From a virus, in IMG/VR virus record IMGVR_UViG_3300009149_000032, positions 1 to 64,000 of that record: a stretch of 64,000 nucleotides of DNA. One strand, given 5' to 3'. Every line of letters begins with the position of its first letter. Position 1 is the first letter of the stretch. Shown one piece after another: positions 29,854 through 51,249 of the stretch. The position numbers and the translations under genes are program-made. The notes under the pieces are model-generated. The model did no database searches and was not told the origin of the DNA. It was given only the letters and a program-made list of their open reading frames with translations.

Positions 29854-29882
29854 TTGACACATAGAGAAAGATGTGTTAAAAT
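29854..29882 (+). promoter_or_regulatory. Near-consensus promoter for the cell-wall and glycan operon
   Basis: TTGACA (29854-29859), a 17-base spacer and TAAAAT (29877-29882) with a preceding TGT lie in the gap after the reductase gene. An AAAGGAG ribosome site follows. No comparable promoter is seen until 43150, so it may drive about 13 kb. Confidence 0.75.
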
Positions 29883-30756: not shown

Positions 30757-30961
30757 CCCAAGACAAACAGTAGTGTATCAATATCTTTGCTCCTCTTGTA
30801 ATCGAATTACAGAGGAGCGTTTCCCATTTGGAGAACCAGATCCTTCTACTCAATGTCAGAACCCTGAGTGTAAGGGAATGGCAATGAAGATACTTTCTAC
30901 TCCAAATGTCCTCATAGGTATACCAATAAATGAAGCACGTAAAGGAAGGGGTAAAGGATGA
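30680..30961 (+). CDS. FmdB-type zinc-ribbon protein
   Basis: The 93-residue product has a zinc ribbon of the FmdB type in its second half: 'VYQYLCSSC', then about 20 residues, then 'CQNPEC', then 'MAMKILSTPN'. ATG 30680 is preferred because AAGGGAG lies nine bases upstream, although this overlaps the 3D-domain gene by 77 bases. A shorter version starting at the GTG just before 'YQYLC' is also possible. FmdB-like ribbons are proposed regulators but are poorly characterised. Confidence 0.55.
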   Translation: MSDSEHTKKQGNGVDNSGLSQYFESNPRQTVVYQYLCSSCNRITEERFPFGEPDPSTQCQNPECKGMAMKILSTPNVLIGIPINEARKGRGKG

Positions 30962-31716
30962 AACTATCGATAGGTGATATTGGAGTAGCAATTCTTAGTA
31001 CCAATAGACCAGAGTGTACTAAGCGTCTTATCAATTCAATAGAGAAGAGAACGCCGGTTTCAGGATGGAAACTATTTGTAATGGATGATTCAGAACCTCG
31101 ATACAAACCACAGGTTCTCTCTGCTTGTCAAAAGGATTGGGTTCAGTATTGTGATACAGGCGAAAGAATTGGAGTAGCAAAAAATACTAATCAAGCAATG
31201 AGAGCGTTGCAACCATACAAGTATAAGATTATACTTAACAATGACGTTGAAATGATAAAGAGAAATTGGATGTTCCTTTATCCTATCGCAATGATGAGGA
31301 CAGGATTCCACCACTTCTGTTTCCAACAAGAGGGTTTGTGGGGAGCAGCAACCAAGAAACGACCTGAAGAGATCTGGAATCACAAAGGTTGTACCATAAA
31401 AACGATTCAGAATTATCCTCAGGGTGCTGTACTCGCCTATGACCAGACAGCATTTGAGACTGTAGGATACTTCGACGCTAAACTCTTCGAGTCGTATGGA
31501 AAGTCTCACTGGGATTGGTCATTCCGAGTTTCGGATTCAGGAATACAGCCAGAAGGTATCCACGATATAGTTGGTTCAAATGATTATATGAAAGTTCACG
31601 ATGAGTTATGTTGTACCCCCACTGCTCAGAGGTTGGAATCATATACTAGAAATACTGCTATCTTAAATAACCTCCGCACCCGAGCAGGTGAAAGGATCTA
31701 CATTCCATATGGCTAA
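30958..31716 (+). CDS. GT-A family glycosyltransferase
   Basis: The 252-residue protein follows the GT2 pattern. It has an N-terminal 'VAILSTNRPECTKRLINSI', an Asp pair in 'FVMDDSEP' (near 42), a nucleotide-sugar site 'ILNNDVEM' (near 93) and a later 'GYFDAKLFESYGKSHWDWSFR' acceptor-side helix. It would transfer a sugar from a nucleotide donor; acceptor and sugar are unknown. It is the first gene of a 12-kb glycan-decoration run and overlaps the next by eight bases. Confidence 0.7.
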   Translation: MKLSIGDIGVAILSTNRPECTKRLINSIEKRTPVSGWKLFVMDDSEPRYKPQVLSACQKDWVQYCDTGERIGVAKNTNQAMRALQPYKYKIILNNDVEMIKRNWMFLYPIAMMRTGFHHFCFQQEGLWGAATKKRPEEIWNHKGCTIKTIQNYPQGAVLAYDQTAFETVGYFDAKLFESYGKSHWDWSFRVSDSGIQPEGIHDIVGSNDYMKVHDELCCTPTAQRLESYTRNTAILNNLRTRAGERIYIPYG

Positions 31717-32392
31717 GTTTCTAGTATGGGTAAACAGTTACAATCGAAAGGAGATGCTTCTATTCCTTATTGACAGTATCCTTTATCAGCAGAGAAGAGA
31801 TACTGTAGACATTATGGTTATAAATGATAGCAGCGACCAAGATTACTCAGAGGTTAAGTCTCAAGTCGATTACTATTGGAAGACGAATAAGAATTACGGT
31901 AAGGAAGAATACTGGAAACTGATTGCGTTTGGTATCAATAAGATTAAATCCATGCCAAAGTACGACTATTATATCAAAACAGACGACGATATGAGATTAT
32001 CTGTAGGATTTTTTCCTACGATTGAGAGATTAGTTTCTGAAATAAATGACCCAAACTGGGCAACTATTGATATTTTATCCGCTCCGAGACAGAGAGGTAG
32101 GACACTTCGGGGTCATTCTGTCGAAATTCAAGGTGAGCGTGATAAATACTTTAGGACACAATGGGTTGATATGAATTTCGTATTCAATCTGAACACGTTT
32201 CCGTATACTATTGAACGATGCAAGGCAGGTAAAGCGTCTAGTGGTGTAGGGTTATGGTTAACTAGATACCTCACCAAGCACGGATATAACCTATATCAAT
32301 CTGCCAACTCTCTGGTACTTCATGGAGATCACGAATCGATGATGAACGTAGAAGAAAGAAAGAAACATCCAATAATAACCAAGGAGAGGTAG
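31709..32392 (+). CDS. GT-A family glycosyltransferase
   Basis: This 227-residue protein starts 'MAKFLVWVNSYNRK' and has 'VINDSSDQDY' and a metal-binding 'IKTDDDMRL' near residue 90. The same order recurs in the gene at 32997, its likely paralogue ('FVWVNTFNRP', 'VVDDAST', 'KIDDDGRL'). ATG 31709 is preferred over an upstream GTG that lacks a ribosome site, although the AGG upstream of 31709 is rather distant. Donor and acceptor are unknown. Confidence 0.65.
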   Translation: MAKFLVWVNSYNRKEMLLFLIDSILYQQRRDTVDIMVINDSSDQDYSEVKSQVDYYWKTNKNYGKEEYWKLIAFGINKIKSMPKYDYYIKTDDDMRLSVGFFPTIERLVSEINDPNWATIDILSAPRQRGRTLRGHSVEIQGERDKYFRTQWVDMNFVFNLNTFPYTIERCKAGKASSGVGLWLTRYLTKHGYNLYQSANSLVLHGDHESMMNVEERKKHPIITKER

Positions 32393-33000
32393 TGAGTTTC
32401 AGAATCTTTACATACTATACCGAGAACACTCCTTACGAACAAGAAGCAGATAATCTTCAACGAGATTGCGAGAGACTCAAGATAGCATTCGAAAAATTCG
32501 CAGTCCCCTCTACAGGTGAGTGGGTAGAGAACACGATGATTAAACCTACTCAAATCTCCGTAGCGTTGGATTGTTTCAGTTCTAGCAATATCGTATGGAT
32601 AGATGCAGACGCAAGAATAAAATCTTATCCACATATCTTTGACGAGTATGAAAATGATGGTATAGACTTCTCTGTATTCCAAATGGGAAGTCAGAAGCGG
32701 GTAACTTCTGGTACTATCTTTATGAGAAACGTTCCTAAGGTTCGAGAGTTCATACATGATTGGAGATTAGAATGTCGGCAATGCATGGATCGAATCGGAG
32801 ATCAGCATTGTCTTAGGAAGTTAATCAAGCGAGAAGGTTACAAGAAGTACGATATAAAATATAGATCCCTTCCGTATTCTTACTGTTACATCTTCGATGA
32901 TTCGTTAAGGAGACTCGCACCGAACATCCCTCCTCTCGAAGGAGAACCTGTTGTAGTACATACTCAAGCGTCGAGGAAGTATAGGAATAAGAAACTATGA
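32392..33000 (+). CDS. Glycosyltransferase-like protein with DxD
   Basis: The 202-residue protein has a GT-A type core with 'NIVWIDADARI' (near 65-75) as the metal and nucleotide-sugar site and 'TSGTIFMRN' (near 106), a pattern of nucleotide-diphospho-sugar transferases. It starts at GTG behind GGAGAGGTA, sharing a base with the previous TAG, and overlaps the next gene by ATGA. Its substrate is unknown. Confidence 0.6.
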   Translation: MSFRIFTYYTENTPYEQEADNLQRDCERLKIAFEKFAVPSTGEWVENTMIKPTQISVALDCFSSSNIVWIDADARIKSYPHIFDEYENDGIDFSVFQMGSQKRVTSGTIFMRNVPKVREFIHDWRLECRQCMDRIGDQHCLRKLIKREGYKKYDIKYRSLPYSYCYIFDDSLRRLAPNIPPLEGEPVVVHTQASRKYRNKKL

Positions 33001-33914
33001 AGCGCACTAGACCAAAGCGAATGAGAAAAAAAGATAAGTCTGCTTATCTCGTTGATGGTGCAGGAAACCTTGTTAGAGGAAGCGGTCCACTTCCGACTCG
33101 AACAAATTATAGAGTACCTAAAGTAAACATGAAGCAGTTCTCTAAGAAAGATCCAAACCGTTCTATCTTTGTTTGGGTTAATACTTTTAACCGTCCAGAG
33201 GATCTCAAATGTTTACTGGGTGATATTTATAAGAACAAACGAGATCACAAGATAAAAGTTCTGGTTGTTGATGATGCTAGTACAGAAGATTACGATACAA
33301 CTCTGGATTCCTTCGCCGGGAAGTTGAATATCGAATATCATAAAATGGATCAAAACCACGGCAAGAAAAAGTATTGGAAACTCTGCACCTACGCTATGAA
33401 TGAAATCAAAGAGAATTCTGGATACGATTACTACGTTAAGATAGATGACGACGGTAGATTGGTTAATGGATTCTTTGATCGCTGCTGCAATATCTGGGAA
33501 AGTATAACTGATGTACGAAAGGTTTGTTTGAACTTCCGTCTGGATAGTAGAGAGGGTAAAGAGGTTTGGACTAATACCAGACCTGTCCTTGAGCAGCACG
33601 GAGGTATCAGCGTATATAAATCTCAGTGGGTTGATATGGATTTCTTCACAACTATCAATTTCTTCTCAGCACTCAGGTACAGACTCAATAAACCACCAGA
33701 TTCGAGATGGAGAAATCCTTGCGTATCTAGTGGAACCGGAAGTGATATAAGTAGGAGACTCACATCACTTGGCTATCATTTGTTTCTCACAACTCAATCT
33801 CTAGTCAAGCATGACGAGCATAATTCAAAAATGAATCCTAAAGAACGTGCAAAGAATCCTCTCATAACAAAACCTTTCACTGACAAAAATTATGGAGTTC
33901 GTAAAAATGGCTAA
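32997..33914 (+). CDS. GT-A family glycosyltransferase
   Basis: The 305-residue protein has a basic N-terminal extension (1-50), then a GT2-like domain: 'FVWVNTFNRPEDLKC', 'KVLVVDDASTEDYD', 'YYVKIDDDGRL' and 'KSQWVDMDFFTTINFF'. The last element is shared with the gene at 31709 ('TQWVDMNFVF'), so the two are probably paralogues. It is translated from an ATGA overlap. The sugar and acceptor are unknown. Confidence 0.68.
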   Translation: MKRTRPKRMRKKDKSAYLVDGAGNLVRGSGPLPTRTNYRVPKVNMKQFSKKDPNRSIFVWVNTFNRPEDLKCLLGDIYKNKRDHKIKVLVVDDASTEDYDTTLDSFAGKLNIEYHKMDQNHGKKKYWKLCTYAMNEIKENSGYDYYVKIDDDGRLVNGFFDRCCNIWESITDVRKVCLNFRLDSREGKEVWTNTRPVLEQHGGISVYKSQWVDMDFFTTINFFSALRYRLNKPPDSRWRNPCVSSGTGSDISRRLTSLGYHLFLTTQSLVKHDEHNSKMNPKERAKNPLITKPFTDKNYGVRKNG

Positions 33915-34611
33915 AGTTTATTTCGGAATGGCAACGTATCCTCCTCGAAAGAAATGTCTTAAGGAAGTCATTCCTAATATTCTACCGCAGTGTACTAAAC
34001 TTTTTGTATACCTGAATAAGTATACAGACGTTCCTAAGATTCTCATTCATCCAAAGATAAAAGTTATTATGGCAGAGAAGGAAGGTGAGTGTGGAGACAT
34101 TGGTAAGTTTCATTTCGTAGACAAGGTAGACGGATACTACTTTACTGTCGATGACGATCTAGTCTATCCTCCAAATTATGCACAGAGAATGATGAGAGCG
34201 GTTGATCATTACAGGCAACGTGCAGTCATAGGGGTTCATGGTTGTGTTCTCAATACGAGAAACATGTGGAACTACTATCGTTCCCGCAGTCTGACCAATT
34301 ATAGAGCAGCACTTGCTAAGGAAAAGAATGTTCATATCATCGGTACAGGCACAGCAGCATTCCACACTAGCACTCTAAAGATATCTAGAAAGTCTTTCCC
34401 TGTGGAAAACATGGCAGACATTTGGTTTGCAATTGAAGGTCAGAAGCAAAGAGTTCCTTTCATTTTAATATCACGACCTATGCGTTGGGTAAATGATTGT
34501 GCTACTGCCCCGCAGACTACTTCTATCTATCGTAAGAGTAAGAATAAAAGTCACGGTAAATACCAAACGAAAGTCATAAAAGAATATGGAAACTGGAAGA
34601 TCATCTCCTAA
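33907..34611 (+). CDS. Glycosyltransferase with DDD motif
   Basis: The 234-residue protein opens with 'VYFGMATYPPRKKCLKEVI', has 'YYFTVDDDLVYPPNY' (near 78-92) as a metal-binding motif, and ends with an acceptor-side 'IWFAIEGQKQRVPFI' segment. ATG 33907 is chosen because GGAG lies nine bases upstream; another ATG lies five codons earlier. Related proteins are annotated as family 2-like transferases. Substrates are unknown. Confidence 0.65.
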   Translation: MAKVYFGMATYPPRKKCLKEVIPNILPQCTKLFVYLNKYTDVPKILIHPKIKVIMAEKEGECGDIGKFHFVDKVDGYYFTVDDDLVYPPNYAQRMMRAVDHYRQRAVIGVHGCVLNTRNMWNYYRSRSLTNYRAALAKEKNVHIIGTGTAAFHTSTLKISRKSFPVENMADIWFAIEGQKQRVPFILISRPMRWVNDCATAPQTTSIYRKSKNKSHGKYQTKVIKEYGNWKIIS

Positions 34612-35302
34612 GATAGCCATTATGGTTGTCGCTAACAATGTCTCGAAGGATGTCCTTAAACGATTCCTCTGGGCATGTGAGAAGTCTGAAAAGGTTTTAC
34701 CTTTCGATGTTATAGTTGGGAACCATAGAGAACCTGAACAGAAGTTTCACAAGACTGTTATCTTGAATGATATGCTCCGCTCGTATAAAGGTAAGTACGA
34801 AGTATTGGTACAGACTGATATTGATATGCTAGTTCCACCTCGATTGATTACTGATACGTATAGATACTGTCTACGATCCAACGATTGCTACCACTGCAAT
34901 TATTATTTGATTGAACCTAAGGAACTTAAAGATAAACTCTACAAAGATATACCTTGGAATAAAATTCAACAGAGGCAAGTCAGGGCAGCATCGGGATCTT
35001 GGAACGGTCTATGTTCTAGAATGTGGAGCGAGTCTGGTGGATTCTGTGAAGCGATTTCTCTCTTAGGTGGTCCTGACTCAGAGTTCTATATGAGAACAAG
35101 GAAGAAAAATATCAGGTGGTATATCACAAGTAAGTTTGTATTAGATCACGTAAATCATCCGAGAAGAAAGGTTAAGAAGCAAGGTAAGAAGAATTTAAGT
35201 ATTGCTAGAAAGTATCCTCGTGATTACAATTGGCTAAAGAATCGTAACAACAATGTTGGTTCAACTAAGATTAAGATTTATTCTTTTAGGGGTAACAAGT
35301 GA
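34586..35302 (+). CDS. Glycosyltransferase, tandem family copy 1
   Basis: The 238-residue protein shares its layout with the next two genes: 'AIMVVANNVSKD', 'VLVQTDIDMLVPPRLI' (DxD near 93), 'SWNGLCSRMWSESGGF' and 'DSEFYMRTRKKNIRW'. The latter resembles the C-terminal galactosyltransferase domain seen in two-domain GT2/GT7 enzymes. The gene overlaps the previous one by 26 bases. Tandem duplication is evident from the motif order; each copy may add a sugar to a different acceptor. Confidence 0.65.
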   Translation: METGRSSPKIAIMVVANNVSKDVLKRFLWACEKSEKVLPFDVIVGNHREPEQKFHKTVILNDMLRSYKGKYEVLVQTDIDMLVPPRLITDTYRYCLRSNDCYHCNYYLIEPKELKDKLYKDIPWNKIQQRQVRAASGSWNGLCSRMWSESGGFCEAISLLGGPDSEFYMRTRKKNIRWYITSKFVLDHVNHPRRKVKKQGKKNLSIARKYPRDYNWLKNRNNNVGSTKIKIYSFRGNK

Positions 35303-35973
35303 AGAAGAAGAAGAAGAAGAAGAAGAAAGATATAGCCATAATCGTAGCAGCAAAAGGAATCGATCCTGCGTGGGTTGATCGGTTCAAGGATAGCATTGTA
35401 AAGTCTAATCCTAAACACTCAGTCGATATCATGATCGGGCAAGGTAAGGATAAGAAGTTTTACAAGACGAGAATTATAAATCACCTTATCAGAAAATGTA
35501 TGCCGCTATACAAAGTTATTATCCAGACTGATATCGATTTACTAATTCCTCCCCTTCTAATTGACAGAACTTACAGAGCGTTAATGAATCAACCTAACAA
35601 TGGATTCCATCATCACTTGAGATACATTGAACCAGAGGAAGTCAAAGGAAAGGCATATAAAGATTATCCTTGGTACAGGTGGGTTAATCTTAAATCATCC
35701 TTCTGTTCTGGTTGTTGGAATGGTATGTTAAGTAATACTTGGGCAAAGAGTAGAGGGTACAACGAAGATATGTTTGCTTGGGGTAGTGAAGACACGGAGT
35801 TCTACAACCGATCCAGAAGACTTGGTATTCGGTGGATCAACTGCAAAGATCTTGGTCTAGTTCATATCAGTCACCCACGAAGAACAAAGCGCAGAGCGCA
35901 AGAGAATTTTAAACTTGGCAATATGTACTCCGATAAAACAAATTGGTTAACCGGCGATCTTCATAAAAAATAG
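35299..35973 (+). CDS. Glycosyltransferase, tandem family copy 2
   Basis: This 224-residue paralogue has 'AIIVAAKGIDP', 'VIIQTDIDLLIPPLLI' (DxD near 78), 'GCWNGMLSNTWAKSRGYNED' and 'SEDTEFYNRSRRLGIRW'. It begins at GTG (AGGGG upstream, overlapping the previous stop) and its N-terminus is a run of nine lysines encoded by an AAG repeat, which is unusual. Function is as for its neighbours; substrate unknown. Confidence 0.65.
   Translation: MKKKKKKKKKDIAIIVAAKGIDPAWVDRFKDSIVKSNPKHSVDIMIGQGKDKKFYKTRIINHLIRKCMPLYKVIIQTDIDLLIPPLLIDRTYRALMNQPNNGFHHHLRYIEPEEVKGKAYKDYPWYRWVNLKSSFCSGCWNGMLSNTWAKSRGYNEDMFAWGSEDTEFYNRSRRLGIRWINCKDLGLVHISHPRRTKRRAQENFKLGNMYSDKTNWLTGDLHKK
35302..35328 (+). repeat. AAG trinucleotide repeat encoding poly-lysine
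   Basis: Nine consecutive AAG codons follow the GTG start of the copy 2 glycosyltransferase. Length change by whole units would alter the Lys tract without shifting the frame. Confidence 0.8.
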
Positions 35974-35982
35974 GAGTGTAGT

Positions 35983-36645
35983 ATGAAGAAGGTAGCAATA
36001 ATGGCAGTGGCACAAAACATCCCACTGGAAACTAGGAATAGATTCTCAGAAAGTATTCGCTTGTCGAACCCTTCAGTATCATGTGATGTGTATCTTCTTG
36101 GAGCAAAGAAACCTCGGAAGAAGAAACAACCATTTAACAAGTCGAAACTTCTTAACAAGGGAATAAAAAAGTTAGTCCCTTTGGGATACGATGTAATCAT
36201 TCAAGCAGATATTGATCTGATAGTTCCTCCGGGACTTATAGACAAGACATACGAGATTGCAATGAGTAAGCGTATCTGTTTCTATAATTGCCACAGACGT
36301 ATCGACCCTGTAGATCTTCCTAATCTTCCTTCCGATTACAGTTCAATGGATTGGAAGAAGTATATGTCGTTTAAGTGGGAAGCAGCAAACGGTTGTTGGA
36401 ATGGGTTGCAGGGAAAGTATTGGATGGATACTGGTGGATACAACGAAGATATGATTGAATGGGGTAAAGAGGATGACGATTGGAGAAGACGAGCAGCAAA
36501 GTTTGGGAAGATTCCTTTTAAGAACTGGAATAAATTCTGTCTCATACATTACAATCACGAAATAAGAACTAAGGATTTCAGAAAGCGAAACAGACAATGT
36601 GAAATCCGTAGCCTTAATAAGGGGAAGTGGAATTGGCTAACGTAG
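35983..36645 (+). CDS. Glycosyltransferase, tandem family copy 3
   Basis: The 220-residue third copy keeps the same order: 'AIMAVAQNIPLET', 'VIIQADIDLIVPPGLI' (DxD near 76), 'GCWNGLQGKYWMDTGGYNED' and 'GKEDDDWRRRAAKFGKI'. The start is a clear ATG after AGGAG. The three copies differ enough to be old duplications. Substrate unknown. Confidence 0.65.
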   Translation: MKKVAIMAVAQNIPLETRNRFSESIRLSNPSVSCDVYLLGAKKPRKKKQPFNKSKLLNKGIKKLVPLGYDVIIQADIDLIVPPGLIDKTYEIAMSKRICFYNCHRRIDPVDLPNLPSDYSSMDWKKYMSFKWEAANGCWNGLQGKYWMDTGGYNEDMIEWGKEDDDWRRRAAKFGKIPFKNWNKFCLIHYNHEIRTKDFRKRNRQCEIRSLNKGKWNWLT

Positions 36646-37358
36646 TTTTCGGACCATACCTCACGAAGAGACTTAAGTTTCATCAACACGATTCCTCCAA
36701 TGGTGGTAAGGGTGGAGCGAAACCCAATGACTATAACCAAATGAAGAATTGGTATGAGAGTGTTAAGAAATGCAATCTCAACGGAGTTATCTTACACAAT
36801 GAATGCTCCCCGGAATTCATCAAGAAGTTTTCAACAGAGAAGATATCATTCTTTAACTGGGAAAAGAAACACAGACCTTCTTATAATGATGAAAGATTCT
36901 ATGCGTACCACGAGTATCTAGTATGTCATCCTAAGGTTGAGAGAGTATTCTTCACAGACCTTTTCGATGTTAGGTTCTGTGCTAATCCATTTAAACTTAT
37001 GGAGAAGAATCCTGAACATGATTTATTCTTTGGTGAAGAGTTGATGAGTAAGTCAAGTTCGAGATGGATGGTTAGGAAGTGTAGAGAGATGAAGTTGCAA
37101 TTGATTACTGGTGGGTATCATCCCGGTCAAGTAATATACAATGCAGGAATCATCGGAGGTAAGCGAAAGCATATTCTCAATCTCTTGATAGATATGAAAT
37201 CTATTTTCGATAAGATACATCCAAGATATAATGCGAATATGCCTGTCTTCAATTTCGCTGCATCTAGAACTCCGAGTAAAATCTTTAGTGGTCCTCCGCT
37301 GCATAATAAATTCAGGTCCAACAAAGTTCCAGAGGGAACTTATATCAAACATAAGTAG
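36633..37358 (+). CDS. Putative glycosyltransferase
   Basis: The roughly 241-residue protein has a probable metal site in 'RVFFTDLFDVRF' (near 104-115) and 'NAGIIGGKRKHILNLL' (near 168-183), patterns seen in nucleotide-diphospho-sugar transferases. The start is uncertain: TTG 36633 lies eight bases after GGGG, whereas GTG 36627 lies too close to the same signal. It overlaps copy 3 by about 13 bases. Substrate unknown. Confidence 0.55.
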   Translation: MANVVFGPYLTKRLKFHQHDSSNGGKGGAKPNDYNQMKNWYESVKKCNLNGVILHNECSPEFIKKFSTEKISFFNWEKKHRPSYNDERFYAYHEYLVCHPKVERVFFTDLFDVRFCANPFKLMEKNPEHDLFFGEELMSKSSSRWMVRKCREMKLQLITGGYHPGQVIYNAGIIGGKRKHILNLLIDMKSIFDKIHPRYNANMPVFNFAASRTPSKIFSGPPLHNKFRSNKVPEGTYIKHK

Positions 37359-37366
37359 GAGAGCAT

Positions 37367-38167
37367 ATGAATATTGTAAATCTATTACCCAAGCATTTCA
37401 TTGAGCATGAATACTTTAACATTATGTACAAGCACTTCGATCCAAAAGTATTTGAAGGTAAGACTATCTATGCATCTCATAATTATAACGAACTTCCTAG
37501 CTACGGAAGAAACGTTATCGCCATACTGACTGCAGGTAATGAGAGAGCAATCCCTCCGAAGTATAAGGACAAGGTTGGTCTTGTATTCAAACATCATCTG
37601 AACGCTAACAATGTAGGGAATGTCTATCATATTCCTCTCACATACGTACAGGGATTCAATGCAACAGATGCTATACCGATACTCAAGAGAAAATATGATG
37701 TAGTATTCATTGGTAGAACCTGCAAGAGAAAAGATATGTGGACAAACGCTTTGCAGTGGAGAGATAGAAACCCCTCCAAGAATTGTCTCCTGATTGATTC
37801 TGGTCAGAGATTCATGGGAGTTAAGGGTGGTATGGGAATCAAAAAGTATTCAGAGTATATGAAAGACGCTAAGATTGTTTTGAGTCCTAAGGGAATGGTT
37901 CGTGCTGAGTGTCTCCGATTCTCTGAGGCAGTTAAGGTTGCTAGTGCTATTGTCGCTTGCCCTCACCCTATGAAGGTAAGATCATTTAAGAACTGCCCTG
38001 CATCCTACGTAACTAACTGGAATGAACTGGGAGGTATTCTGGATTCTTATACAGATGAGAAGTTACAAAGGGTACACAATAAAATGAAACTCTGTTGGAG
38101 AGACTACTTCTCTCCTGAGTCTATCGGAAAGTATATCTCAAAGGTAACTAAATCGATCCTATGCTAA
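37367..38167 (+). CDS. Exostosin-like/GT-B glycosyltransferase
   Basis: The 266-residue protein resembles the C-terminal donor-binding half of GT-B exostosin-like enzymes. Supporting segments are 'YDVVFIGRTCKRKDMW' (near 110), 'YSEYMKDAKIVLSPKG' and 'RFSEAVKVASAIVACPHP' (near 185-202). It differs in fold from the GT-A neighbours, so it likely adds another linkage to the same glycan. It starts at ATG after AGGAG and its end overlaps the sulfotransferase gene. Confidence 0.6.
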   Translation: MNIVNLLPKHFIEHEYFNIMYKHFDPKVFEGKTIYASHNYNELPSYGRNVIAILTAGNERAIPPKYKDKVGLVFKHHLNANNVGNVYHIPLTYVQGFNATDAIPILKRKYDVVFIGRTCKRKDMWTNALQWRDRNPSKNCLLIDSGQRFMGVKGGMGIKKYSEYMKDAKIVLSPKGMVRAECLRFSEAVKVASAIVACPHPMKVRSFKNCPASYVTNWNELGGILDSYTDEKLQRVHNKMKLCWRDYFSPESIGKYISKVTKSILC

Positions 38168-38745
38168 GAATAATACAAGTACGAATACCAAAGACTGCTA
38201 CGACTTCTATTGAAGCGGCACTTAAGTTTATGAGGAATAAGAATCTCTTAACCCTTAAACCACATGGTCACGACCAAACTCCTGCAATACTTAGACAGTA
38301 CACAGCAGAAGTGAAAAAGAAAGCAATAGTGCTTGCCTCTGTCCGTAATCCTTTTGATAGATTGGTCAGTGCATATCAATACATTGTCCAGTTCAAAAAG
38401 GATAAGAGGAATAAAGAGTTGAAGTATGTTTTCGATTATCCATCCTTCAGGGACTTCGCAATTGATCTCCCCAAGATATTCGAGAAGAATCAATTCTTTC
38501 ATCCTCATACGAGATGGTTGTATAATGGAGAGAAGAAACTCTACAATTTTCTCATTCGATATGAATCACTTGAGGGAGATTGGAATAGATTCCTTAAGGA
38601 ATATAAGTTATCACCTATGCCTCTACCAGTACAGCGGAAGACAAAGAGGAAGAGTTGGAGAAATTATTATGACGATGAGAGTATGAAGGTAGTTCACAAA
38701 GTTTACGAGGAAGACTTTAGGAGGTTAAAATACGATGGCAATTAG
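38161..38745 (+). CDS. PAPS-dependent sulfotransferase (copy 1)
   Basis: The 194-residue protein carries both PAPS-binding elements of family 2 sulfotransferases. The 5'-phosphosulfate loop is 'VRIPKTATTSIEAAL' (7-21) and the 3'-phosphate site is 'LASVRNPFDRLVSAYQY' (about 58-74). It would move sulfate from PAPS to a carbohydrate hydroxyl. PAPS must come from the host. Sulfotransferases are rare in phages, and this one lies among glycosyltransferases. The ribosome site is weak; the ATG overlaps the previous stop. Confidence 0.75.
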   Translation: MLRIIQVRIPKTATTSIEAALKFMRNKNLLTLKPHGHDQTPAILRQYTAEVKKKAIVLASVRNPFDRLVSAYQYIVQFKKDKRNKELKYVFDYPSFRDFAIDLPKIFEKNQFFHPHTRWLYNGEKKLYNFLIRYESLEGDWNRFLKEYKLSPMPLPVQRKTKRKSWRNYYDDESMKVVHKVYEEDFRRLKYDGN

Positions 38746-39319
38746 TCCTGCTAATATAGATCTTATACCACAAGGAGTAAAATTTCTTGGAGTAACGTTC
38801 AAGGATGTTTGGGTTGGTGAACTTGGTAATATAAATATTCGCCAATTAAAATGTACAGCAAAGTCGTGGTTCAAGAAGAAAGGTTCTAAGCATACAAGTT
38901 TTGATATCAATGGTAAGGATGGAGCGATTGCTGTAGATCTATGCAAACCAATCCCTGACAAGTATAAGAACAAGTTCAATATGGTTACGAACTTTGGTAC
39001 AACTGAACACGTTGAAGATCAGACACAGGTATTCAGAAACATACACGATATGACCACAGTGGGTGGAGTTATGATTCATTCTGTTCCCCTTCATGGTTAC
39101 TGGAAAGGTCATTGTCCATTTCGATACACAGCAAAGTTTCCTCCAATGCTTTCAGGATTGAATGGATACTCACTTAAGTTTCAAGAGATAAGGGATAGGT
39201 GGAAAGAAAAGCTATTGAATTTTATCGTACAGAAAACCAGTAATGAATTCGTGGCGATAGATCTTTCTGCTATCACCGTATCAAAAAAATACAAGAAGAA
39301 TACAGACAATTTGTTTTAG
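38735..39319 (+). CDS. Class I methyltransferase-like protein
   Basis: The 194-residue protein has the second half of a type 11 methyltransferase pattern: 'NMVTNFGTTEHVEDQTQVF' (near 89-107) followed by 'VGGVMIHSVPLHGYW'. A normal Gly-rich SAM loop is not clear at the N-terminus, so the enzyme may be divergent or inactive. GGAGG lies ten bases upstream of the ATG. Position suggests methylation of a sugar in the same pathway. Confidence 0.55.
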   Translation: MAISPANIDLIPQGVKFLGVTFKDVWVGELGNINIRQLKCTAKSWFKKKGSKHTSFDINGKDGAIAVDLCKPIPDKYKNKFNMVTNFGTTEHVEDQTQVFRNIHDMTTVGGVMIHSVPLHGYWKGHCPFRYTAKFPPMLSGLNGYSLKFQEIRDRWKEKLLNFIVQKTSNEFVAIDLSAITVSKKYKKNTDNLF

Positions 39320-39327
39320 GATACACC

Positions 39328-40092
39328 ATGATTAATCTTTATGCTGCTAAGTGGATCAAGACTGTCAGAAACTTTGGCGATACTGTAAATCCATTTCTTG
39401 TAACCTCGCTCACTGGGAAACCTTCTCAATTCACATTGAATAGGAAAGTGAAAAGGTATATGGTTTCTGGGAGCGTTCTCCACCACGCAGATAAGAATTG
39501 CGAAGTCTGGGGTTCAGGGTTGATATCATACAACGCCATACCAATCCGCAAGCCAAAAGTATTCTATGCTGTGAGGGGTCCGAGGACTCATCTCATGCTG
39601 AAGGAACATAGGATAGTTACTCCAGAAGTTTACGGAGATCCTGTCTTACTTTTCCCTCGCATATATAATCCTACTGTAGAAAAGAAATATGAGGTAGGAA
39701 TTATCCCACACTATGCTGATAAAGATTCTTTGTGGGTTAAGAAAGTTTCTAAAAACAAAAATGTTAAGGTAATAGATATACAACATAAGAACTTTAAAGA
39801 AATGATTAACGATGTATTGAGTTGTAACATAATCCTATCCAGTTCGCTTCACGGAGTTGTAATTGGAGACGCTTACAATGTTCCTTCACACTGGATAAGT
39901 TTATCAGAGAAGGTTAAGGGTAAGGGTTTTAAGTTCGCTGACTACTATGCTTCTGTAAATAGATTCTGTTTTCTAAGAACTGTATCAGAAGAAACTCGTC
40001 TGAGTAGTATCCTTAACGGTTTTGATAATTACGAAGTCGATATAGATTTAGAACCTCTCATAAAGTCTTGTCCGTTTGGAGAAATCAAATGA
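39328..40092 (+). CDS. Polysaccharide pyruvyltransferase
   Basis: The 254-residue protein matches the CsaB/WcaK-type pyruvyltransferase family. Its segments are 'NFGDTVNPFLV' (N-terminal), 'VWGSGLIS', 'YAVRGPRTHLML', 'VYGDPVLLFP', 'VGIIPHYADKD' and 'IILSSSLHGVVIGDAYNVP' (near 170-190). These enzymes add pyruvate ketals to surface polysaccharides using phosphoenolpyruvate. It gives the island an acidic, non-sugar modification beside sulfate. The stop overlaps the next start by ATGA. Confidence 0.78.
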   Translation: MINLYAAKWIKTVRNFGDTVNPFLVTSLTGKPSQFTLNRKVKRYMVSGSVLHHADKNCEVWGSGLISYNAIPIRKPKVFYAVRGPRTHLMLKEHRIVTPEVYGDPVLLFPRIYNPTVEKKYEVGIIPHYADKDSLWVKKVSKNKNVKVIDIQHKNFKEMINDVLSCNIILSSSLHGVVIGDAYNVPSHWISLSEKVKGKGFKFADYYASVNRFCFLRTVSEETRLSSILNGFDNYEVDIDLEPLIKSCPFGEIK

Positions 40093-41262
40093 AGATAGTA
40101 AGTTTCTATCATGACGTAGCGAGTAAGAAGTATTTTTTATGACCACTCAATAAGATTAACAAAGCAGTGTAAGTCTCTCGGATTAGACTACCACATTGTT
40201 CACAGAGACTTTGGTAAGTCGTGGATAGATAATGTCCGACCAATAGGAAATAGAGTTGTGTCTATACTATACTACGCAAAACCTAAAGGAGTAACTTCGA
40301 GAGCGATCTATGATGAAGTGGTTGGTAGATTTTATAATCCAATCTTCTTGAATGTAACGGGGATAAGAAACATACTCAATGATATCAAACAGTACAGTCC
40401 TGAACAGATATGGGTATCCTCCGACTGTCTAGAAAGTATGTCTCACAAAGCAAGAGTGATTCGAAATATGAAAATCCCCGTTGTCAATCTAAATATAAAG
40501 GAACGGTCACAAAAGAACCACGCTATTTATAAGAGAGTCAATCAGATACTCATTGAAGCAAACCTCCCCTTAACAAAGTACAAGGGTGAGGTAAAGCCAT
40601 TATTCTTTTTAATGATTGACAAATGTATCTCTGAGTATCTAGAAGCGAATGACTCTATAAAAGATATCAACCGCAAGTATCCTCTAGTTGTTATATCGTC
40701 TGGGTTGAACCAAGCAGCAATTGAAAAGCATCTTCCTGAATGTATATTTATTGATTCGAAGAAGAACTCATTTCCACATAAGCTGAAATTATTCCTAGAG
40801 TATATCAACCATAGGAATATAAACTATAACATTGCGTTCAGATTAGATATGGATTGTATTATATTTGATGTTGAGAGATTAATTGAAATGGGTAAGTATA
40901 TTGTGGGGAGAAAAGTTCTGGTTGGTAATCTGAAAAAAGCAACAGGTTCATACGTTATAAAGTGGTTTGGTCGTCACGGAGGATATATTCGTGGTGGATG
41001 CAATATGACAACAAAGGAATCGCTAGATTCTATCAAACAGTTTAACGATGAAGATTTTAAACCGCAAGACTTTGACGCTTGCTATAATATAATTCTAGCT
41101 AGATTTGGTGTGCAACAATTAGGTCTTCCTATATTCGAATTCAATGAGAGATATCAAGGTCAGCATCCGGCATGGCACCCGATCAAGTTGAAAACTGTAG
41201 GAAGGATGGAACTCTTTAAACAGCACAACGATTTGTATAACTCACAGGAGAAAGCATCGTGA
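40089..41262 (+). pseudogene. Glycosyltransferase interrupted by a +1 shift at a T6 run
   Basis: The gene starts at ATG 40089 (ATGA overlap with the pyruvyltransferase). The first 16 codons then hit a TGA just after a T6 run at 40133-40138. Removing one T joins this start to the long frame that runs to 41262 and gives a continuous 390-residue protein. The missing bridge reads 'YFYDHSIRLTKQCKSLGLDY' and continues to 'RVVSILYYAK'. The downstream part has a DxD in 'FRLDMDCIIF' and 'GGYIRGGCNM', typical of nucleotide-sugar transferases. A sequencing error, a real mutation, phase variation or programmed +1 shifting could each explain it. Confidence 0.8.
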
Positions 41263-41891
41263 AGCAACTAAAGGTGGATTCATATAAAGAGTATGTTAAA
41301 CTTCAGACCAAAGGTAATAAAGCGAAGTTGAAGAAGAATAAAAATCTTCACGGTATTAAGAATGAAGAGATTGATTTCGTTACGAAGTATGTTAAAAAGA
41401 ATATCCCAGAGGCAACGTTTGGGATCTGCCACGGTGTACGAAATGGTTGGGAAGTTTGTGAACTTCGAAAATCTCTTGACATAGATATTATCGGGACAGA
41501 CATATCATCGACAGCAGTAGAGTTTGAACATGTTATCCAACACGACTTCCATAAGATTAAACCTGAGTGGTTGGGTAGCGTTGATTTTATTATGACAAAC
41601 TCACTAGATCATTCTTATGACCCTGCAATGGCTATTGACCAGTGGATGAGTTGTGTTAAAGATACAGGAAGGTTATTTCTTATCTGGATGAAAACACACA
41701 ACGAAAGTTTCCTCCGAGAAGGAAGCGATGATCTCTTCGGTGCGAATAGACCTGAGTATAAAGATTTGATTGAGAAGAAGTATTGTCTTGAAGAGATGAA
41801 ACCTATTCGAGTTCTCAACCACGGAGTCCGTTATATATTTATAGTTAAACATAGGAGAGAATCTAATGGCAATGGTATCGAAGTCTCATAA
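41259..41891 (+). CDS. Class I SAM-dependent methyltransferase
   Basis: The 210-residue protein has a SAM-binding pattern: motif I-like 'FGICHGVRNGWEV' (near 54-66), acidic 'DIIGTDISSTAVE' (near 76-88) and 'VDFIMTNSLDHSYDPAMAID' (near 108-127). It probably methylates a small molecule or sugar. It starts at GTG behind AGGAG, overlapping the previous stop, and overlaps the following sulfotransferase gene by 26 bases. Acceptor unknown. Confidence 0.6.
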   Translation: MKQLKVDSYKEYVKLQTKGNKAKLKKNKNLHGIKNEEIDFVTKYVKKNIPEATFGICHGVRNGWEVCELRKSLDIDIIGTDISSTAVEFEHVIQHDFHKIKPEWLGSVDFIMTNSLDHSYDPAMAIDQWMSCVKDTGRLFLIWMKTHNESFLREGSDDLFGANRPEYKDLIEKKYCLEEMKPIRVLNHGVRYIFIVKHRRESNGNGIEVS

Positions 41892-42540
41892 ATTTATCTA
41901 CGTATCCGGTGGTAGGAACGCCACTGGTGCTGTCAAGGGTGCGCTTGTAAAGATCCCCGGTCTTGATTACTTTGAACCTGCCAAGAAGAACAAAGGTGAT
42001 TGGAGAAAGTTTAACAAGCATATGCCTGCAAGACATATCAAACGAGCAATCTCTGCAGATGTTTGGAACAAGTCATTCAAGTTTACCTTTGTGCGTAACA
42101 CATACAGTTGGGTTGTATCCTCATTCTTCTTCTGGGTAAAGATCGGTATGCGACCTATGCCTAAGAATAAAATTATGACAATGGATGATTTCAAGTTCGC
42201 TGTGAAGTATTACAGATCTCCTCAGGGTAGAAGACATGATGAGTGTTCAGACATACGCTCACAGCATTCATTCATCTGTAGTAAGGATGGATATATTCTT
42301 TTGGACTTCGTAGGTCACTTCGAGAACCTCCAGAAAGATTTCGATGAGATATGTACCCACATTGAAATCAAACCGATCCCTCTGACTGTACAGAACTCTT
42401 CTGCTGCGTCTCAACATAAGAAACACTCGACGGGTATTCATTGGAGTGAACACTACAAGAGTAATGCAAATGCTCAAGACTATATCTATAAACATTGGAA
42501 GAGAGATATAGACGCATTCAAATTTAAGTTGGAGAAGTAA
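41866..42540 (+). CDS. Sulfotransferase family protein (copy 2)
   Basis: The 224-residue protein follows the carbohydrate sulfotransferase pattern. The N-terminal loop 'FIYVSGGRNATGAVKGAL' (near 10-27) is divergent from the usual PKTGTTS form, the 3'-phosphate site is 'FTFVRNTYSWVVSSFFFW' (near 69-86), and a late 'DFVGHFENLQKDFDEIC' (near 145-161) is typical of family 2. It is not closely similar to copy 1. It would add a second sulfate or act on another acceptor. Starts after GGAG. Confidence 0.65.
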   Translation: MAMVSKSHKFIYVSGGRNATGAVKGALVKIPGLDYFEPAKKNKGDWRKFNKHMPARHIKRAISADVWNKSFKFTFVRNTYSWVVSSFFFWVKIGMRPMPKNKIMTMDDFKFAVKYYRSPQGRRHDECSDIRSQHSFICSKDGYILLDFVGHFENLQKDFDEICTHIEIKPIPLTVQNSSAASQHKKHSTGIHWSEHYKSNANAQDYIYKHWKRDIDAFKFKLEK

Positions 42541-43127
42541 TGGCAAAGATATTTTTAGATCTCGGTGTCCATAATGGGCAGACATTAGAGATGGGTATCA
42601 AAACTTATCCTCACTTCGATAGGTTCATTGGAATCGAACCTGTAACATCATTATGTGAAAAAGCTATTGGTAGATGTAGTGCATATAAAGATAAGAACAT
42701 AAAGGTTTATAATATAGCTTTGGATAGTCTGAGTGTTCTGAAAAAGACGATAACATTTTATGAGGATACAAGCAAAGGTAATCATCAACTAGGTTCCTCA
42801 CTCTTCTCGGACAAGACTATGAGAACTAATAAGAAAGTGGAAGTAATGTGTTGGGATGTGAATCATTTCTTTAGAACCAACTTCAAGGATAATGATCAGG
42901 TCGTAATGAAGATTGACGTTGAAGGTGCTGAATACAGGATCTTTGATGCACTGATTACCTCAGGACTCCTCAAGAAGCACGTTATAAAAATCTTTGCTGA
43001 GTGGCACTGGAACAAAGTACCCTCAATAAGCAAGGATGAACACAACAGAATTCTTATTGCCCTCAACAAATTAGGCTATAACCTCAAAGGTAAGAGCAAG
43101 TTAGATGAATTTTATAATGGATTTTAA
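42540..43127 (+). CDS. FkbM-family methyltransferase (copy 1)
   Basis: The 195-residue protein has FkbM-type motifs: 'FLDLGVHNGQT' (5-15), 'RFIGIEPVTSLC' (near 28-39) and 'VVMKIDVEGAEYRIFDAL' (near 120-137). FkbM enzymes O-methylate sugars or related hydroxyls. The ATG shares one base with the preceding stop. It closes the 30958-43127 glycan run; a new promoter follows directly. Confidence 0.75.
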   Translation: MAKIFLDLGVHNGQTLEMGIKTYPHFDRFIGIEPVTSLCEKAIGRCSAYKDKNIKVYNIALDSLSVLKKTITFYEDTSKGNHQLGSSLFSDKTMRTNKKVEVMCWDVNHFFRTNFKDNDQVVMKIDVEGAEYRIFDALITSGLLKKHVIKIFAEWHWNKVPSISKDEHNRILIALNKLGYNLKGKSKLDEFYNGF

Positions 43128-43149: not shown

Positions 43150-43178
43150 TTGACAATCCCGCCAGATTCAGATATAAT
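43150..43178 (+). promoter_or_regulatory. Perfect-consensus promoter
   Basis: TTGACA (43150-43155) and TATAAT (43173-43178) are separated by 17 bases in the short gap after the FkbM gene. It opens the RNA ligase/PARP block. Confidence 0.88.
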
Positions 43179-43206: not shown

Positions 43207-43464
43207 ATGCAAATACGTTGCTATAGGTTCTGGATAACATTACTACCTCTATTCCTCGTGCTTGTACTGGCATTGTCTGCTCTCGGTGGTCATGCCGTGT
43301 ATCAATATGGGTATTTCTCCGGTAGACAAAGGGGATATCCAGAAGGTTGGTTTGACAGGCATATGCGAGATGATTTTGCTAAGAAGATTTTCTGTGGTCA
43401 GTATTGGAAGTATGTAGAATCGCTTTGTCACTCTGACCAAGTTAGGAGAGAAGAGAAATGGTAA
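43207..43464 (+). CDS. Small membrane protein
   Basis: The 85-residue protein has one strong hydrophobic segment near the N-terminus (about residues 8-28, rich in Leu and Val) and a charged, aromatic C-terminal part. ATG 43207 is chosen because GGGAG lies five bases upstream; an ATG at 43195 has no ribosome site. It overlaps the RNA ligase start by seven bases. Function is unknown; an inner-membrane position is inferred. Confidence 0.6.
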   Translation: MQIRCYRFWITLLPLFLVLVLALSALGGHAVYQYGYFSGRQRGYPEGWFDRHMRDDFAKKIFCGQYWKYVESLCHSDQVRREEKW

Positions 43465-49326: not shown

Positions 49327-50619
49327 ATGTCAGAGCGAAAGAAATGGACGCTCGATGATTGGAAGAAAGATAAAGAAGAACTTGAAGAAACTAAAAAGGA
49401 TATACCCTTGAATGTAGTAGGGTTATTACCTGACTCTCCTGTAAATGTATCAGGAGTATTACCTCCCGGATATGATATATCCCCTCCAGTTCAAGGAGAA
49501 GCGTATGAAATAAATGGCGAAGAGTTCATTGGTCAAAGTCCCGCTCCTGAAAAAGATGTGAATGTAGAAGTCAACCTAGATAAGAACGTCTCGGTTGATT
49601 TCGCATTGTCTGACGAAGATGAACCTGTCAGAATCAAATCAAATAAAGAAGACAACAATGACAAGAAGGGGATTCGTCACGGTAGGAGTCAGTACGAAGG
49701 TTTTAATATAGGTCACTATGTACAGACCCCACCCATCCTATTCACAAGAGATAGTCACAATGTATTCATGGGAGACATGTATAGAGGTGCAACTGCATTC
49801 CTAATACTTGGTGGTCCTAGTATGAAGAATCTAAACCTCGACTCTCTCAAACGTCCGGGAATTCTTACTATGGGAGTCAACAACTCTGTTAGAACATTCC
49901 GTCCTAACCTCTGGACATGTGTAGATAATCCATCTCACTTCATAAAATCTATCTGGTTTGATCCTACGATCACAAAGTTAGTTCCTATGGCACATGCAGA
50001 GAAGAAGATCTTCGATAATGTATCTTGGAAAGAGATGGATATGGTTGTAGGTTCTGCTCCTAACGTTTTTTATTACAGACGCAATGAGCATTTCGTACCA
50101 AGTCAATTCCTGTTTGAAGATACAATCAACTGGGGAAATCATTCTAACCTATGCCACTGCGGGTTCTGGCGAGGTAAGAGTGATGAGAAGAAAGTCTCTG
50201 TATGTCCTGATTGTGGAGAGAAAGCGTTTGGTTCTCGAAGTGTCTTCCTCCCCGCAATCCGTCTTCTTTATTATCTAGGAGTGAGAAACATATTCCTTCT
50301 GGGTTGTGACTTCAATATGAAGAAGGGTGAACAGAACTATCACTTTGAACAGGACAGAACATCTAGCTCAGTTAATAACAATAACAATTCATACAGAATG
50401 TTGGCTAAACGTTTCGAGGATTTGAAACCTTACTTCAAAAAGTATGGTCTTCAGATATTCAATTGTAATCCTGACTCTGCTCTTGAAGTTTTTCCAAAGG
50501 TCAGTTTCAAAGATGCAATCGATGCAGCACTCCACCCAATGCCGGATACTGAGAACGAAAGAACCGAAGGATTGTATGACAGAGAAGCGAAACTCAAAGC
50601 ACAAGGGAAATCCAAATGA
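49327..50619 (+). CDS. GT42/DUF115-like glycosyltransferase-fold protein (copy 2)
   Basis: The 430-residue protein has an acidic, Pro-rich N-terminal part (1-125) and a C-terminal domain like that at 26494: 'FLILGGPSMKNLNL' (near 158), 'LWTCVDNPSHF', and 'AIRLLYYLGVRNIFLLGCDFN' (near 312-332). It adds a zinc-ribbon insert with CHC and CPDC (near 278-300), absent from copy 1. The family includes sialyl- and pseudaminyl-type transferases. Substrate unknown. It starts after AGGAG. Confidence 0.55.
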   Translation: MSERKKWTLDDWKKDKEELEETKKDIPLNVVGLLPDSPVNVSGVLPPGYDISPPVQGEAYEINGEEFIGQSPAPEKDVNVEVNLDKNVSVDFALSDEDEPVRIKSNKEDNNDKKGIRHGRSQYEGFNIGHYVQTPPILFTRDSHNVFMGDMYRGATAFLILGGPSMKNLNLDSLKRPGILTMGVNNSVRTFRPNLWTCVDNPSHFIKSIWFDPTITKLVPMAHAEKKIFDNVSWKEMDMVVGSAPNVFYYRRNEHFVPSQFLFEDTINWGNHSNLCHCGFWRGKSDEKKVSVCPDCGEKAFGSRSVFLPAIRLLYYLGVRNIFLLGCDFNMKKGEQNYHFEQDRTSSSVNNNNNSYRMLAKRFEDLKPYFKKYGLQIFNCNPDSALEVFPKVSFKDAIDAALHPMPDTENERTEGLYDREAKLKAQGKSK

Positions 50620-51248: not shown

Positions 51249-51249
51249 T

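What the first reader, a model, noticed from the sequence alone, without database searches (positions are those of the whole stretch)
30958..43127. A 12-kb phage glycan-decoration island with glycosyltransferases, two sulfotransferases, a pyruvyltransferase and methyltransferases
About fifteen consecutive genes encode sugar transfer (GT-A and GT-B types), PAPS-dependent sulfation, PEP-dependent pyruvylation and O-methylation. They appear to be driven by one strong promoter at 29854. This set could build or remodel a sulfated, pyruvylated, methylated glycan on virions, phage DNA or the host surface. Single glycosyltransferases are known in phages; this combination with sulfate and pyruvate chemistry is, as far as I know, unusual. 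No sugar-nucleotide synthesis genes are visible, so donors and PAPS would come from the host.
Basis: partly seen in the sequence, partly recalled or inferred. Interest (0 to 1): 0.85.

Follow-up and report, generated by a model that had tools for sequence, protein, structure and literature searches.

The report
Phage island building sulfated, pyruvylated glycans
A bacterial virus carries about twenty genes for assembling a sugar chain and capping it with sulfate, pyruvate and methyl groups, most likely to coat its own particles; such clusters recur in large phages, but none has been tested in the laboratory.

Summary
Between 30958 and 43127 lie 17 head-to-tail ORFs. Pfam supports two sulfotransferases (4.9e-14, 2.3e-10), a polysaccharide pyruvyltransferase (1e-10; AlphaFold pLDDT 94.7, best PDB match yeast Pvg1p), three methyltransferases (one weak) and about ten glycosyltransferases. 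The gene set continues to 53342. The island is one predicted transcription unit between two consensus sigma-70-type promoters. It is syntenic and under purifying selection in three related contigs. The pyruvyltransferase and g14 are absent from the only relative whose whole island can be read, so the cap chemistry is modular. No island protein has a predicted membrane span. No flippase, polymerase, sugar-nucleotide gene or nucleotide hydroxymethylase was found in the window or the 192-kb relative. Two island enzymes match the two halves of a glycosyltransferase of mycobacteriophages with glycosylated virions. Of viral pyruvyltransferase loci, 0 of 81 have a large membrane protein nearby, against 33 of 79 cellular loci. 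I favour cytoplasmic glycosylation of virion proteins with anionic and methyl caps (about 0.5) over host-surface remodelling (0.27) or DNA (0.05). The combination is not unique: a 462-kb phage and seven of 80 IMG/VR loci pair pyruvyl- and sulfotransferase. New variant of a known kind.

The parts
29854..29882 (+). strong sigma-70-type promoter (TTGACA-17-TAAAAT, extended TG) at the head of the island unit
   Evidence: 11/12 match; present at the same place after RNR in L009 and G017/L058
30238..30756 (+). 3D-domain protein with an N-terminal hydrophobic segment, in the same predicted unit, upstream of the island; role unclear
   Evidence: PF06725 4.1e-18; hydrophobic segment
30958..31716 (+). 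g01 GT-A glycosyltransferase; matches the N-half of the mycobacteriophage Myrna gp234 / Zerg gp100 family
   Evidence: PHROG 1579 and 2456; tblastn; profile 5.8e-13 in an 8-sequence set
31709..32392 (+). g02 GT2-like glycosyltransferase with conserved DDD, paralogue of g04
32392..33000 (+). g03 nucleotide-diphospho-sugar transferase
   Evidence: PF03407 5.4e-6, over cut-off
32997..33914 (+). g04 GT2-like glycosyltransferase; fused to g05-like (and g01-like) domains in L074, L096, L117
33892..34611 (+). g05 GT2-like glycosyltransferase; most conserved island gene in L009 (85% aa)
34586..35302 (+). g06 GT7-like (beta-1,4-galactosyltransferase family), DID motif
   Evidence: profile A3 hits B4GalT1 at 4e-7 and chondroitin synthase at 1.1e-5; alignment
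35299..35973 (+). g07 GT7-like, tandem paralogue of g06
   Evidence: PF02709 3e-6
35983..36645 (+). g08 GT7-like, tandem paralogue of g06 and g07
   Evidence: PF02709 5.7e-4, below cut-off
36627..37358 (+). g09 glycosyltransferase; matches the C-half of the Zerg gp100 / Myrna gp234 family
   Evidence: PHROG 1579 3.5e-16; tblastn 7e-8; profile 5e-19 in an 8-sequence set
37367..38167 (+). g10 exostosin / RXYLT1-like glycosyltransferase; 78% aa in G017
   Evidence: PF24785 2.2e-7
38161..38745 (+). g11 PAPS-type sulfotransferase with PKTATTS and VRNPFDRLVSAY motifs
   Evidence: PF03567 4.9e-14; same PKTA-TS motif as HS2ST in 4ndz
38735..39319 (+). g12 methyltransferase
   Evidence: PF13489 1.8e-6, over cut-off
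39328..40092 (+). g13 polysaccharide pyruvyltransferase
   Evidence: PF04230 1e-10; AF2 pLDDT 94.7; top PDB match 5ax7 Pvg1p
40258..41262 (+). g14 putative glycosyltransferase (DMD motif read by eye); no family match; absent from G017
41259..41891 (+). g15 probable methyltransferase; lies between g10 and g11 in G017
   Evidence: PF08241 0.0014, below cut-off
41866..42540 (+). g16 second sulfotransferase; Arg in place of Lys in the 5'-PSB-like loop, kept in G017
   Evidence: PF03567 2.3e-10; alignment
42540..43127 (+). g17 FkbM-family methyltransferase
   Evidence: PF05050 8.3e-11; TIGR01444 1.8e-10 over cut-off
43150..43178 (+). perfect sigma-70-type promoter that opens the next unit
   Evidence: 12/12; conserved in G017/L057
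49327..50619 (+). MptE/DUF115-like protein, possible accessory glycosyltransferase; paralogue of 26395-27420
   Evidence: PF01973 0.0011, below cut-off; AF2 uninformative, pLDDT 53
50616..51248 (+). second FkbM methyltransferase, absent from G017
   Evidence: PF05050 3.7e-12; TIGR01444 5.5e-13
51181..52116 (+). GT8-like glycosyltransferase
   Evidence: PF01501 1.4e-4, just below cut-off
52101..53342 (+). methyltransferase with an unassigned N-terminal domain
   Evidence: PF13489 7.1e-7 at residues 252-389

Best explanation
The island is a phage-encoded cytoplasmic glycan assembly line. Early in infection, host RNA polymerase transcribes it from the promoter at 29854 as one unit. About ten soluble glycosyltransferases use host nucleotide sugars to build an oligosaccharide directly on a cytoplasmic acceptor, most likely Ser/Thr residues of capsid, tail or decoration proteins before or during assembly. 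Two sulfotransferases (host PAPS), one pyruvyltransferase (host PEP) and several SAM-dependent methyltransferases then cap it. The virion would carry an anionic, methylated sugar coat. The caps are exchangeable, since the pyruvyltransferase and g14 are missing at the same locus in a relative. A varying coat fits a role in particle stability, adsorption or escape from recognition. Shown: enzyme families, predicted operon structure, synteny, constraint, modularity, absence of membrane and export genes. Inferred: the acceptor, the order of reactions, the donors, the timing and the benefit.
For: Enzyme families and the g13 fold. g01 and g09 match the two halves of one fused glycosyltransferase of mycobacteriophages (PHROG 1579; tblastn; profiles), including Myrna gp234, which lies four genes from a Che8 gp110 homologue (gp238). 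PMC12363180, citing Freeman 2023, reports glycosylated virion proteins in Che8, Corndog and Myrna and says Che8 gp110 is essential for capsid glycosylation. No predicted membrane span in g01-g17, and no G017 ORF with more than three. In the same pyruvyltransferase family 0/81 viral loci but 33/79 cellular loci have an ORF with 8 or more spans within 6 kb; a cellular homologue sits next to a Wzx-type flippase. Fusions elsewhere join g01-, g04- and g05-like domains beside pyruvyltransferases and GT2-GT2-pyruvyltransferase, supporting one pathway. The closest viral folds to g13 are giant-virus proteins.
Against: No acceptor is identified. Only two of 17 proteins clearly match the mycobacteriophage set, and the proven GT (Che8 gp110) has no clear homologue here. 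Phage genomes in general hold few large membrane proteins, so the 0/81 result partly reflects phage gene content; no general phage control was run. The host could supply flippase and polymerase. The consensus promoters look early rather than late, which is neutral or slightly against a structural role. The related huge-phage cluster LR756500 carries Capsule_synth and Kdo-pathway genes, which points to a surface glycan there.
Confidence: 0.5

Rival explanations
1. Host-surface remodelling: the enzymes alter LPS, capsule or another envelope glycan of the infected cell, using host flippase, polymerase or transporter, to block superinfection or re-adsorption of progeny, as proposed for cyanophage P-SSM2-type clusters.
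For: Published interpretation of comparable jumbo-phage clusters (PMC7824862). LR756500 combines sulfo- and pyruvyltransferase with Capsule_synth, cytidylyltransferase, DAHP-synthetase-family (Kdo8P-synthase-like) and SIS genes. Cellular homologues of g13 sit in surface-polysaccharide loci. Early-type promoters.
Against: No membrane protein, flippase, polymerase or lipid-sugar initiator in the island; no ORF with more than 3 spans in the 192-kb relative. Phages known to remodel capsules can encode such proteins, e.g. a prophage Wzy (PMC9241936). 0/81 viral pyruvyltransferase loci have one.
Confidence: 0.27
2. DNA hypermodification: the glycosyltransferases decorate phage DNA against host nucleases, as in T-even phages.
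For: Cytoplasmic enzymes without membrane spans; virus-encoded GTs hypermodify DNA in other phages (reference cited in PMC12619734).
Against: No thymidylate synthase / nucleotide hydroxymethylase family member in the window, G001, G013 or G017, with 9 of 14 controls positive. Sulfation, pyruvylation and ten GTs far exceed known DNA glycosylation sets (own knowledge). The TET/JBP search was silent in the controls too and is not informative.
Confidence: 0.05
3. The island makes a glycan on another target: a host protein, a secreted or lysate polymer, or a small glycoside.
For: No acceptor is identified; FkbM and Methyltransf_23 enzymes also act on small molecules (own knowledge).
Against: Multi-GT fusions with a pyruvyltransferase and the Pvg1p-like fold of g13 point to oligosaccharide acceptors.
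Confidence: 0.12
4. The genes are decaying cargo without function.
For: Most island proteins diverge faster than DNA polymerase (53-85% against 87% aa identity to the same relative).
Against: No broken ORFs; dN/dS 0.06-0.23 for g01-g07 (dS near saturation); catalytic motifs conserved; order and promoters conserved.
Confidence: 0.02

Closest known systems
Mycobacteriophage virion glycosylation (Che8, Corndog, Myrna; Freeman 2023, read here only through PMC12363180 and PMC11256854)
   Same: Phage-encoded clustered glycosyltransferases; g01 and g09 are homologous to the two halves of the Myrna gp234 / Zerg gp100 enzyme.
   Different: Those cassettes have 2-3 GT genes; here about ten GTs plus sulfo-, pyruvyl- and methyltransferases. 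No clear homologue of the proven GT Che8 gp110. Unrelated T4-like phage.
Cyanophage P-SSM2-type LPS / capsular polysaccharide modification clusters (PMC7824862)
   Same: Large multi-GT cluster in a T4-like phage, variable between relatives, with methyltransferases in some.
   Different: Those include epimerases, isomerases and sugar-nucleotide genes, not found here; the paper mentions no sulfotransferase or pyruvyltransferase.
LR756500.1 huge-phage cluster (L004; also IMG/VR contig L071)
   Same: Sulfotransfer_2, PS_pyruv_trans (42% aa to g13), GTs and methyltransferases close together.
   Different: Adds Capsule_synth and Kdo-pathway-like genes; different gene order; one sulfotransferase.
Bacterial surface-polysaccharide loci with PF04230 (e.g. 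Flavobacterium L172, Odoribacter L206)
   Same: Homologous pyruvyltransferase beside GTs.
   Different: Cellular loci often carry flippase- or polymerase-like membrane proteins (33/79); viral ones do not (0/81).
Yeast Pvg1p galactose pyruvyltransferase
   Same: Best PDB fold match for g13 (E 3.4e-4).
   Different: 12% identity and low TM-score (0.38); whether its PEP-binding residues R217 and R337 (PMC4872226) have counterparts in g13 was not mapped.

Membership tests
PS_pyruv_trans (PF04230) | profile match over the curated cut-off | tested here: met
   42.4 bits against 25.3
PS_pyruv_trans (PF04230) | fold of a solved pyruvyltransferase | tested here: met
   AF2 pLDDT 94.7; top PDB match 5ax7, though TM only 0.38
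PS_pyruv_trans (PF04230) | PEP-dependent ketal transfer | not testable with these tools
   needs enzyme assay; this clade has S-[SE]-L-H-G where many members have R-L-H (own knowledge)
Sulfotransfer_2 (PF03567) | profile match over cut-off | tested here: met
   g11 53.5 and g16 41.5 bits against 22
Sulfotransfer_2 (PF03567) | 5'-PSB lysine motif and 3'-PB RxxxxxxS motif for PAPS | tested here: inconclusive
   g11 has both; g16 has Arg for Lys, kept in G017
Virion glycosylation cassette of mycobacteriophages | homologue of the GT essential for capsid glycosylation (Che8 gp110) | tested here: not met
   no significant match
Virion glycosylation cassette of mycobacteriophages | homologue of the accompanying ~480-aa GT (Myrna gp234 type) | tested here: met
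   g01 and g09 match its two halves
Virion glycosylation cassette of mycobacteriophages | glycan found on capsid or tail tube | not testable with these tools
   no isolate; needs virion mass spectrometry
P-SSM2-type LPS/capsule cluster | sugar-nucleotide synthesis genes (NAD epimerases, nucleotidyltransferases) | tested here: not met
   PF01370 and PF00483 absent in window, G001, G013, G017; controls 14/14
Surface polysaccharide export system (Wzx/Wzy/initiating transferase) | polytopic membrane proteins | tested here: not met
   no spans in g01-g17; no G017 ORF over 3
T-even-type DNA glucosylation | nucleotide hydroxymethylase (PF00303 family) | tested here: not met
   0/4 records; records may be incomplete

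The most novel reading that the evidence does not exclude
A T4-like phage coats its own virions with a complex acidic, sulfated and pyruvylated, O-methylated oligosaccharide built entirely in the cytoplasm, a bacterial-virus analogue of self-glycosylating giant viruses, with caps swapped between relatives as a variable surface.
Probability: 0.35. Interest if true: 0.85.

Novelty: new variant of a known kind. Interest (0 to 1): 0.55.

Why it matters
[quoted passage not shown] This island places two of them, with a pyruvyltransferase, inside one conserved transcription unit together with the glycosyltransferases that could make their acceptor, and so turns an orphan annotation into a testable pathway. 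Sulfated or pyruvylated virion glycans have not, to my knowledge, been reported in phages. If they exist, they would give phage particles a sialic-acid-like anionic coat that could alter adsorption, stability and recognition. The set would also be a source of compact, soluble enzymes for making acidic glycans.

Tried and rejected
DNA hypermodification was tested by looking for PF00303 and Tet_JBP in the window and three relatives: the first is absent with good controls, the second is uninformative because the controls were silent too. A T4 late promoter (TATAAATA) was looked for; it is not clearly enriched (7 against 3.8 expected, 5 of 100 shuffles as high) and none sits at the island head. 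A Maf/DUF115 protein-O-glycosyltransferase reading of 49327 was tried with AlphaFold; the model is poor (pLDDT 53) and no solved relative was found by profile, so it is left open. Host identification was not achieved: no tRNA in the window, and the g13 relatives are spread over many phyla. The g13 tree does not resolve its origin. Literature searches for phage sulfotransferase with FkbM or pyruvyltransferase gave no direct description. The Freeman 2023 paper itself is not held. No record for Corndog was found under two accessions.
Full report
OBSERVATION. The window is 64,000 of 64,291 bases of an IMG/VR virus record. Between 30958 and 43127 there are 17 + strand ORFs of 194-334 aa, overlapping or nearly abutting. 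Pfam places over their cut-offs two Sulfotransfer_2 proteins (38161, 4.9e-14; 41866, 2.3e-10), one PS_pyruv_trans (39328, 1e-10), an FkbM methyltransferase (42540), a Methyltransf_23 (38735), an RXYLT1_C glycosyltransferase (37367), a Nucleotid_trans (32392) and a Glyco_transf_7C (35299). GT2 and GT7 hits to the others are below cut-off, but paralogy, motifs and profiles support them. g06-g08 are a tandem triplicate with a DID motif, and their profile finds beta-1,4-galactosyltransferase at 4e-7 and chondroitin synthase at 1.1e-5 in the PDB. g02 and g04 share a DDD motif. g14 has no family, and g15 is only a weak methyltransferase.

EXTENT. The same kind of genes resumes at 49327-53342: MptE/DUF115-like (weak), a second FkbM methyltransferase, a GT8-like ORF (just below cut-off) and a Methyltransf_23 protein. 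Rnl2 RNA ligase, a WGR-PARP and a DNA ligase lie between.

TRANSCRIPTION UNIT. TTGACA-17-TAAAAT with an extended TG at 29854, and a perfect promoter at 43150, bracket the island. Eleven sites with at least 11 of 12 matches occur in 64 kb, against 0-4 in ten Markov controls; all lie between 8.6 and 53.8 kb, away from the tail-fibre-like and structural-protein region at the left end of the window and from the minus-strand genes beyond 56 kb. The 29854 site is at the same place after the RNR gene in L009 and G017, and the 43150 site is conserved in G017.

RELATIVES. The DNA polymerase places the phage with T4-like phages at about 29% identity. G017 (IMGVR_UViG_3300005077_000004, 191,782 bp, with tail sheath and terminase) is colinear with nearly the whole window. 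Its island keeps g01-g12, g16 and g17 at 45-78% aa identity, has g15 between g10 and g11, and has an unrelated 320-aa ORF between g12 and g16 where the window has g13-g15; g13 and g14 are absent. L009 holds g01-g07 up to its contig end, and L023 holds a variant with different ORFs in place of g02-g04. Among 37 records with a related RNR or polymerase, PF04230 is found in none and PF03567 in three. dN/dS is 0.06-0.23 for g01-g07 against L009, with dS near saturation, compared with 0.07 for DNA polymerase, while amino-acid identity ranges from 53 to 85%. The genes are therefore constrained, but several diverge faster than the replication genes.

ENZYMES. g11 has PKTATTS and VRNPFDRLVSAY, and its first motif aligns with PKTASTS of heparan sulfate 2-O-sulfotransferase. 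g16 has Arg where g11 has Lys, as do its G017 orthologue and the annotated sulfotransferase of Stenotrophomonas phage DLP_6, so it is probably but not certainly active. g13 was modelled from 25 viral homologues with mean pLDDT 94.7; the best PDB match is the pyruvyltransferase Pvg1p (E 3.4e-4, TM 0.38), and the best viral matches are giant-virus pyruvyltransferases at 28-31% identity with TM 0.88-0.89.

ONE PATHWAY. g01 and g09, separate here, match the N and C halves of one phage protein family (PHROG 1579). L074 encodes a g01-g04-g05-like fusion beside two pyruvyltransferases, and L096 and L117 encode g04-g05-like fusions near pyruvyltransferases. L086 encodes a GT2-GT2-pyruvyltransferase protein close to an epimerase and a sulfotransferase. 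These fusions argue that the genes work on one glycan.

TARGET. Three readings were tested. DNA: no member of the hydroxymethylase family in four records, so unlikely. Host surface: no membrane spans in g01-g17 and no ORF over three spans in G017. In the g13 family, 0/81 viral against 33/79 cellular loci have an ORF of eight or more spans within 6 kb, and cellular copies lie in surface-polysaccharide loci, one beside a flippase. Phage genomes are generally poor in such proteins, which weakens this contrast, yet capsule-modifying prophages can carry a Wzy (PMC9241936). Virion: g01 and g09 find mycobacteriophage glycosyltransferases, Myrna gp234 and the F1-cluster enzyme among them. PMC12363180 reports, from Freeman 2023, glycosylated virion proteins in Che8, Corndog and Myrna. 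The enzyme named as essential there, Che8 gp110, has no clear homologue in the island, though its homologue gp238 lies near gp234 in Myrna. I therefore give virion decoration about 0.5, host surface 0.27, DNA 0.05.

NOVELTY. Multi-gene glycan clusters in large phages are known (PMC7824862), as are single phage sulfotransferases (PMC10580990; PHROG 3347). At least 157 IMG/VR stretches encode relatives of g13. Seven of 80 loci pair it with a Sulfotransfer_2 gene within 10 kb, confirmed with the Pfam model in five of those records that were checked and in LR756500. Only one of 39 RNR loci matched the sulfotransferase profile, and that was G017 itself; this is descriptive, not a test of enrichment. 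No nucleotide-level relative is in the phage collection, and g04, g05 and g10 have no protein match there. The combination of two sulfotransferases, a pyruvyltransferase, several methyltransferases and about ten GTs in one conserved unit is a new variant of a known kind.

LIMITS. G017 has no completeness estimate. E-values are for a set of eight sequences. The membrane-span count is a hydropathy threshold, not a trained predictor. Neither acceptor nor product is known.

Noticed in passing
window 45518-46825: WGR + PARP regulatory + PARP catalytic domain protein (PF00644 3.5e-30), 67% identical in G017: a PARP-like ADP-ribosyltransferase in a phage.
   Followed up: no
window 43458-44501 and 47468-48607: T4 Rnl2-type RNA ligase and ATP-dependent DNA ligase on either side of the PARP gene, possibly a nucleic-acid repair module.
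   Followed up: no
window 48658-49326; G017 65065-65346 and 60561-60674; L009 18226-18636: An HNH-like (read by eye) ORF whose relatives are inserted inside the G017 island and next to g07 in L009; possible mobile endonuclease linked to gene exchange.
   Followed up: partly
G017 79182-83399 and 67329-69977: DNA polymerase ORF of 1405 aa (931 in the window) and RNR ORF of 882 aa (732 in the window): in-frame insertions, possibly inteins.
   Followed up: no
L007 (Prevotella phage Lak-B7) 20001-20723: The Lak-phage pyruvyltransferase homologue reads through only with TAG as a sense codon.
   Followed up: partly
L150 and L151: Nearly identical pyruvyltransferase loci in MAGs called Deltaproteobacteria and Aminicenantes, suggesting a shared phage or mis-binned contigs.
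   Followed up: no
window 26395-27420 and 49327-50619: Two paralogous MptE/DUF115-like proteins on either side of the island, both conserved in G017; function unknown.
   Followed up: partly
G017 133001-153000 (L062): 28 tRNA genes in one 20-kb stretch of the relative, plus one more nearby.
   Followed up: no
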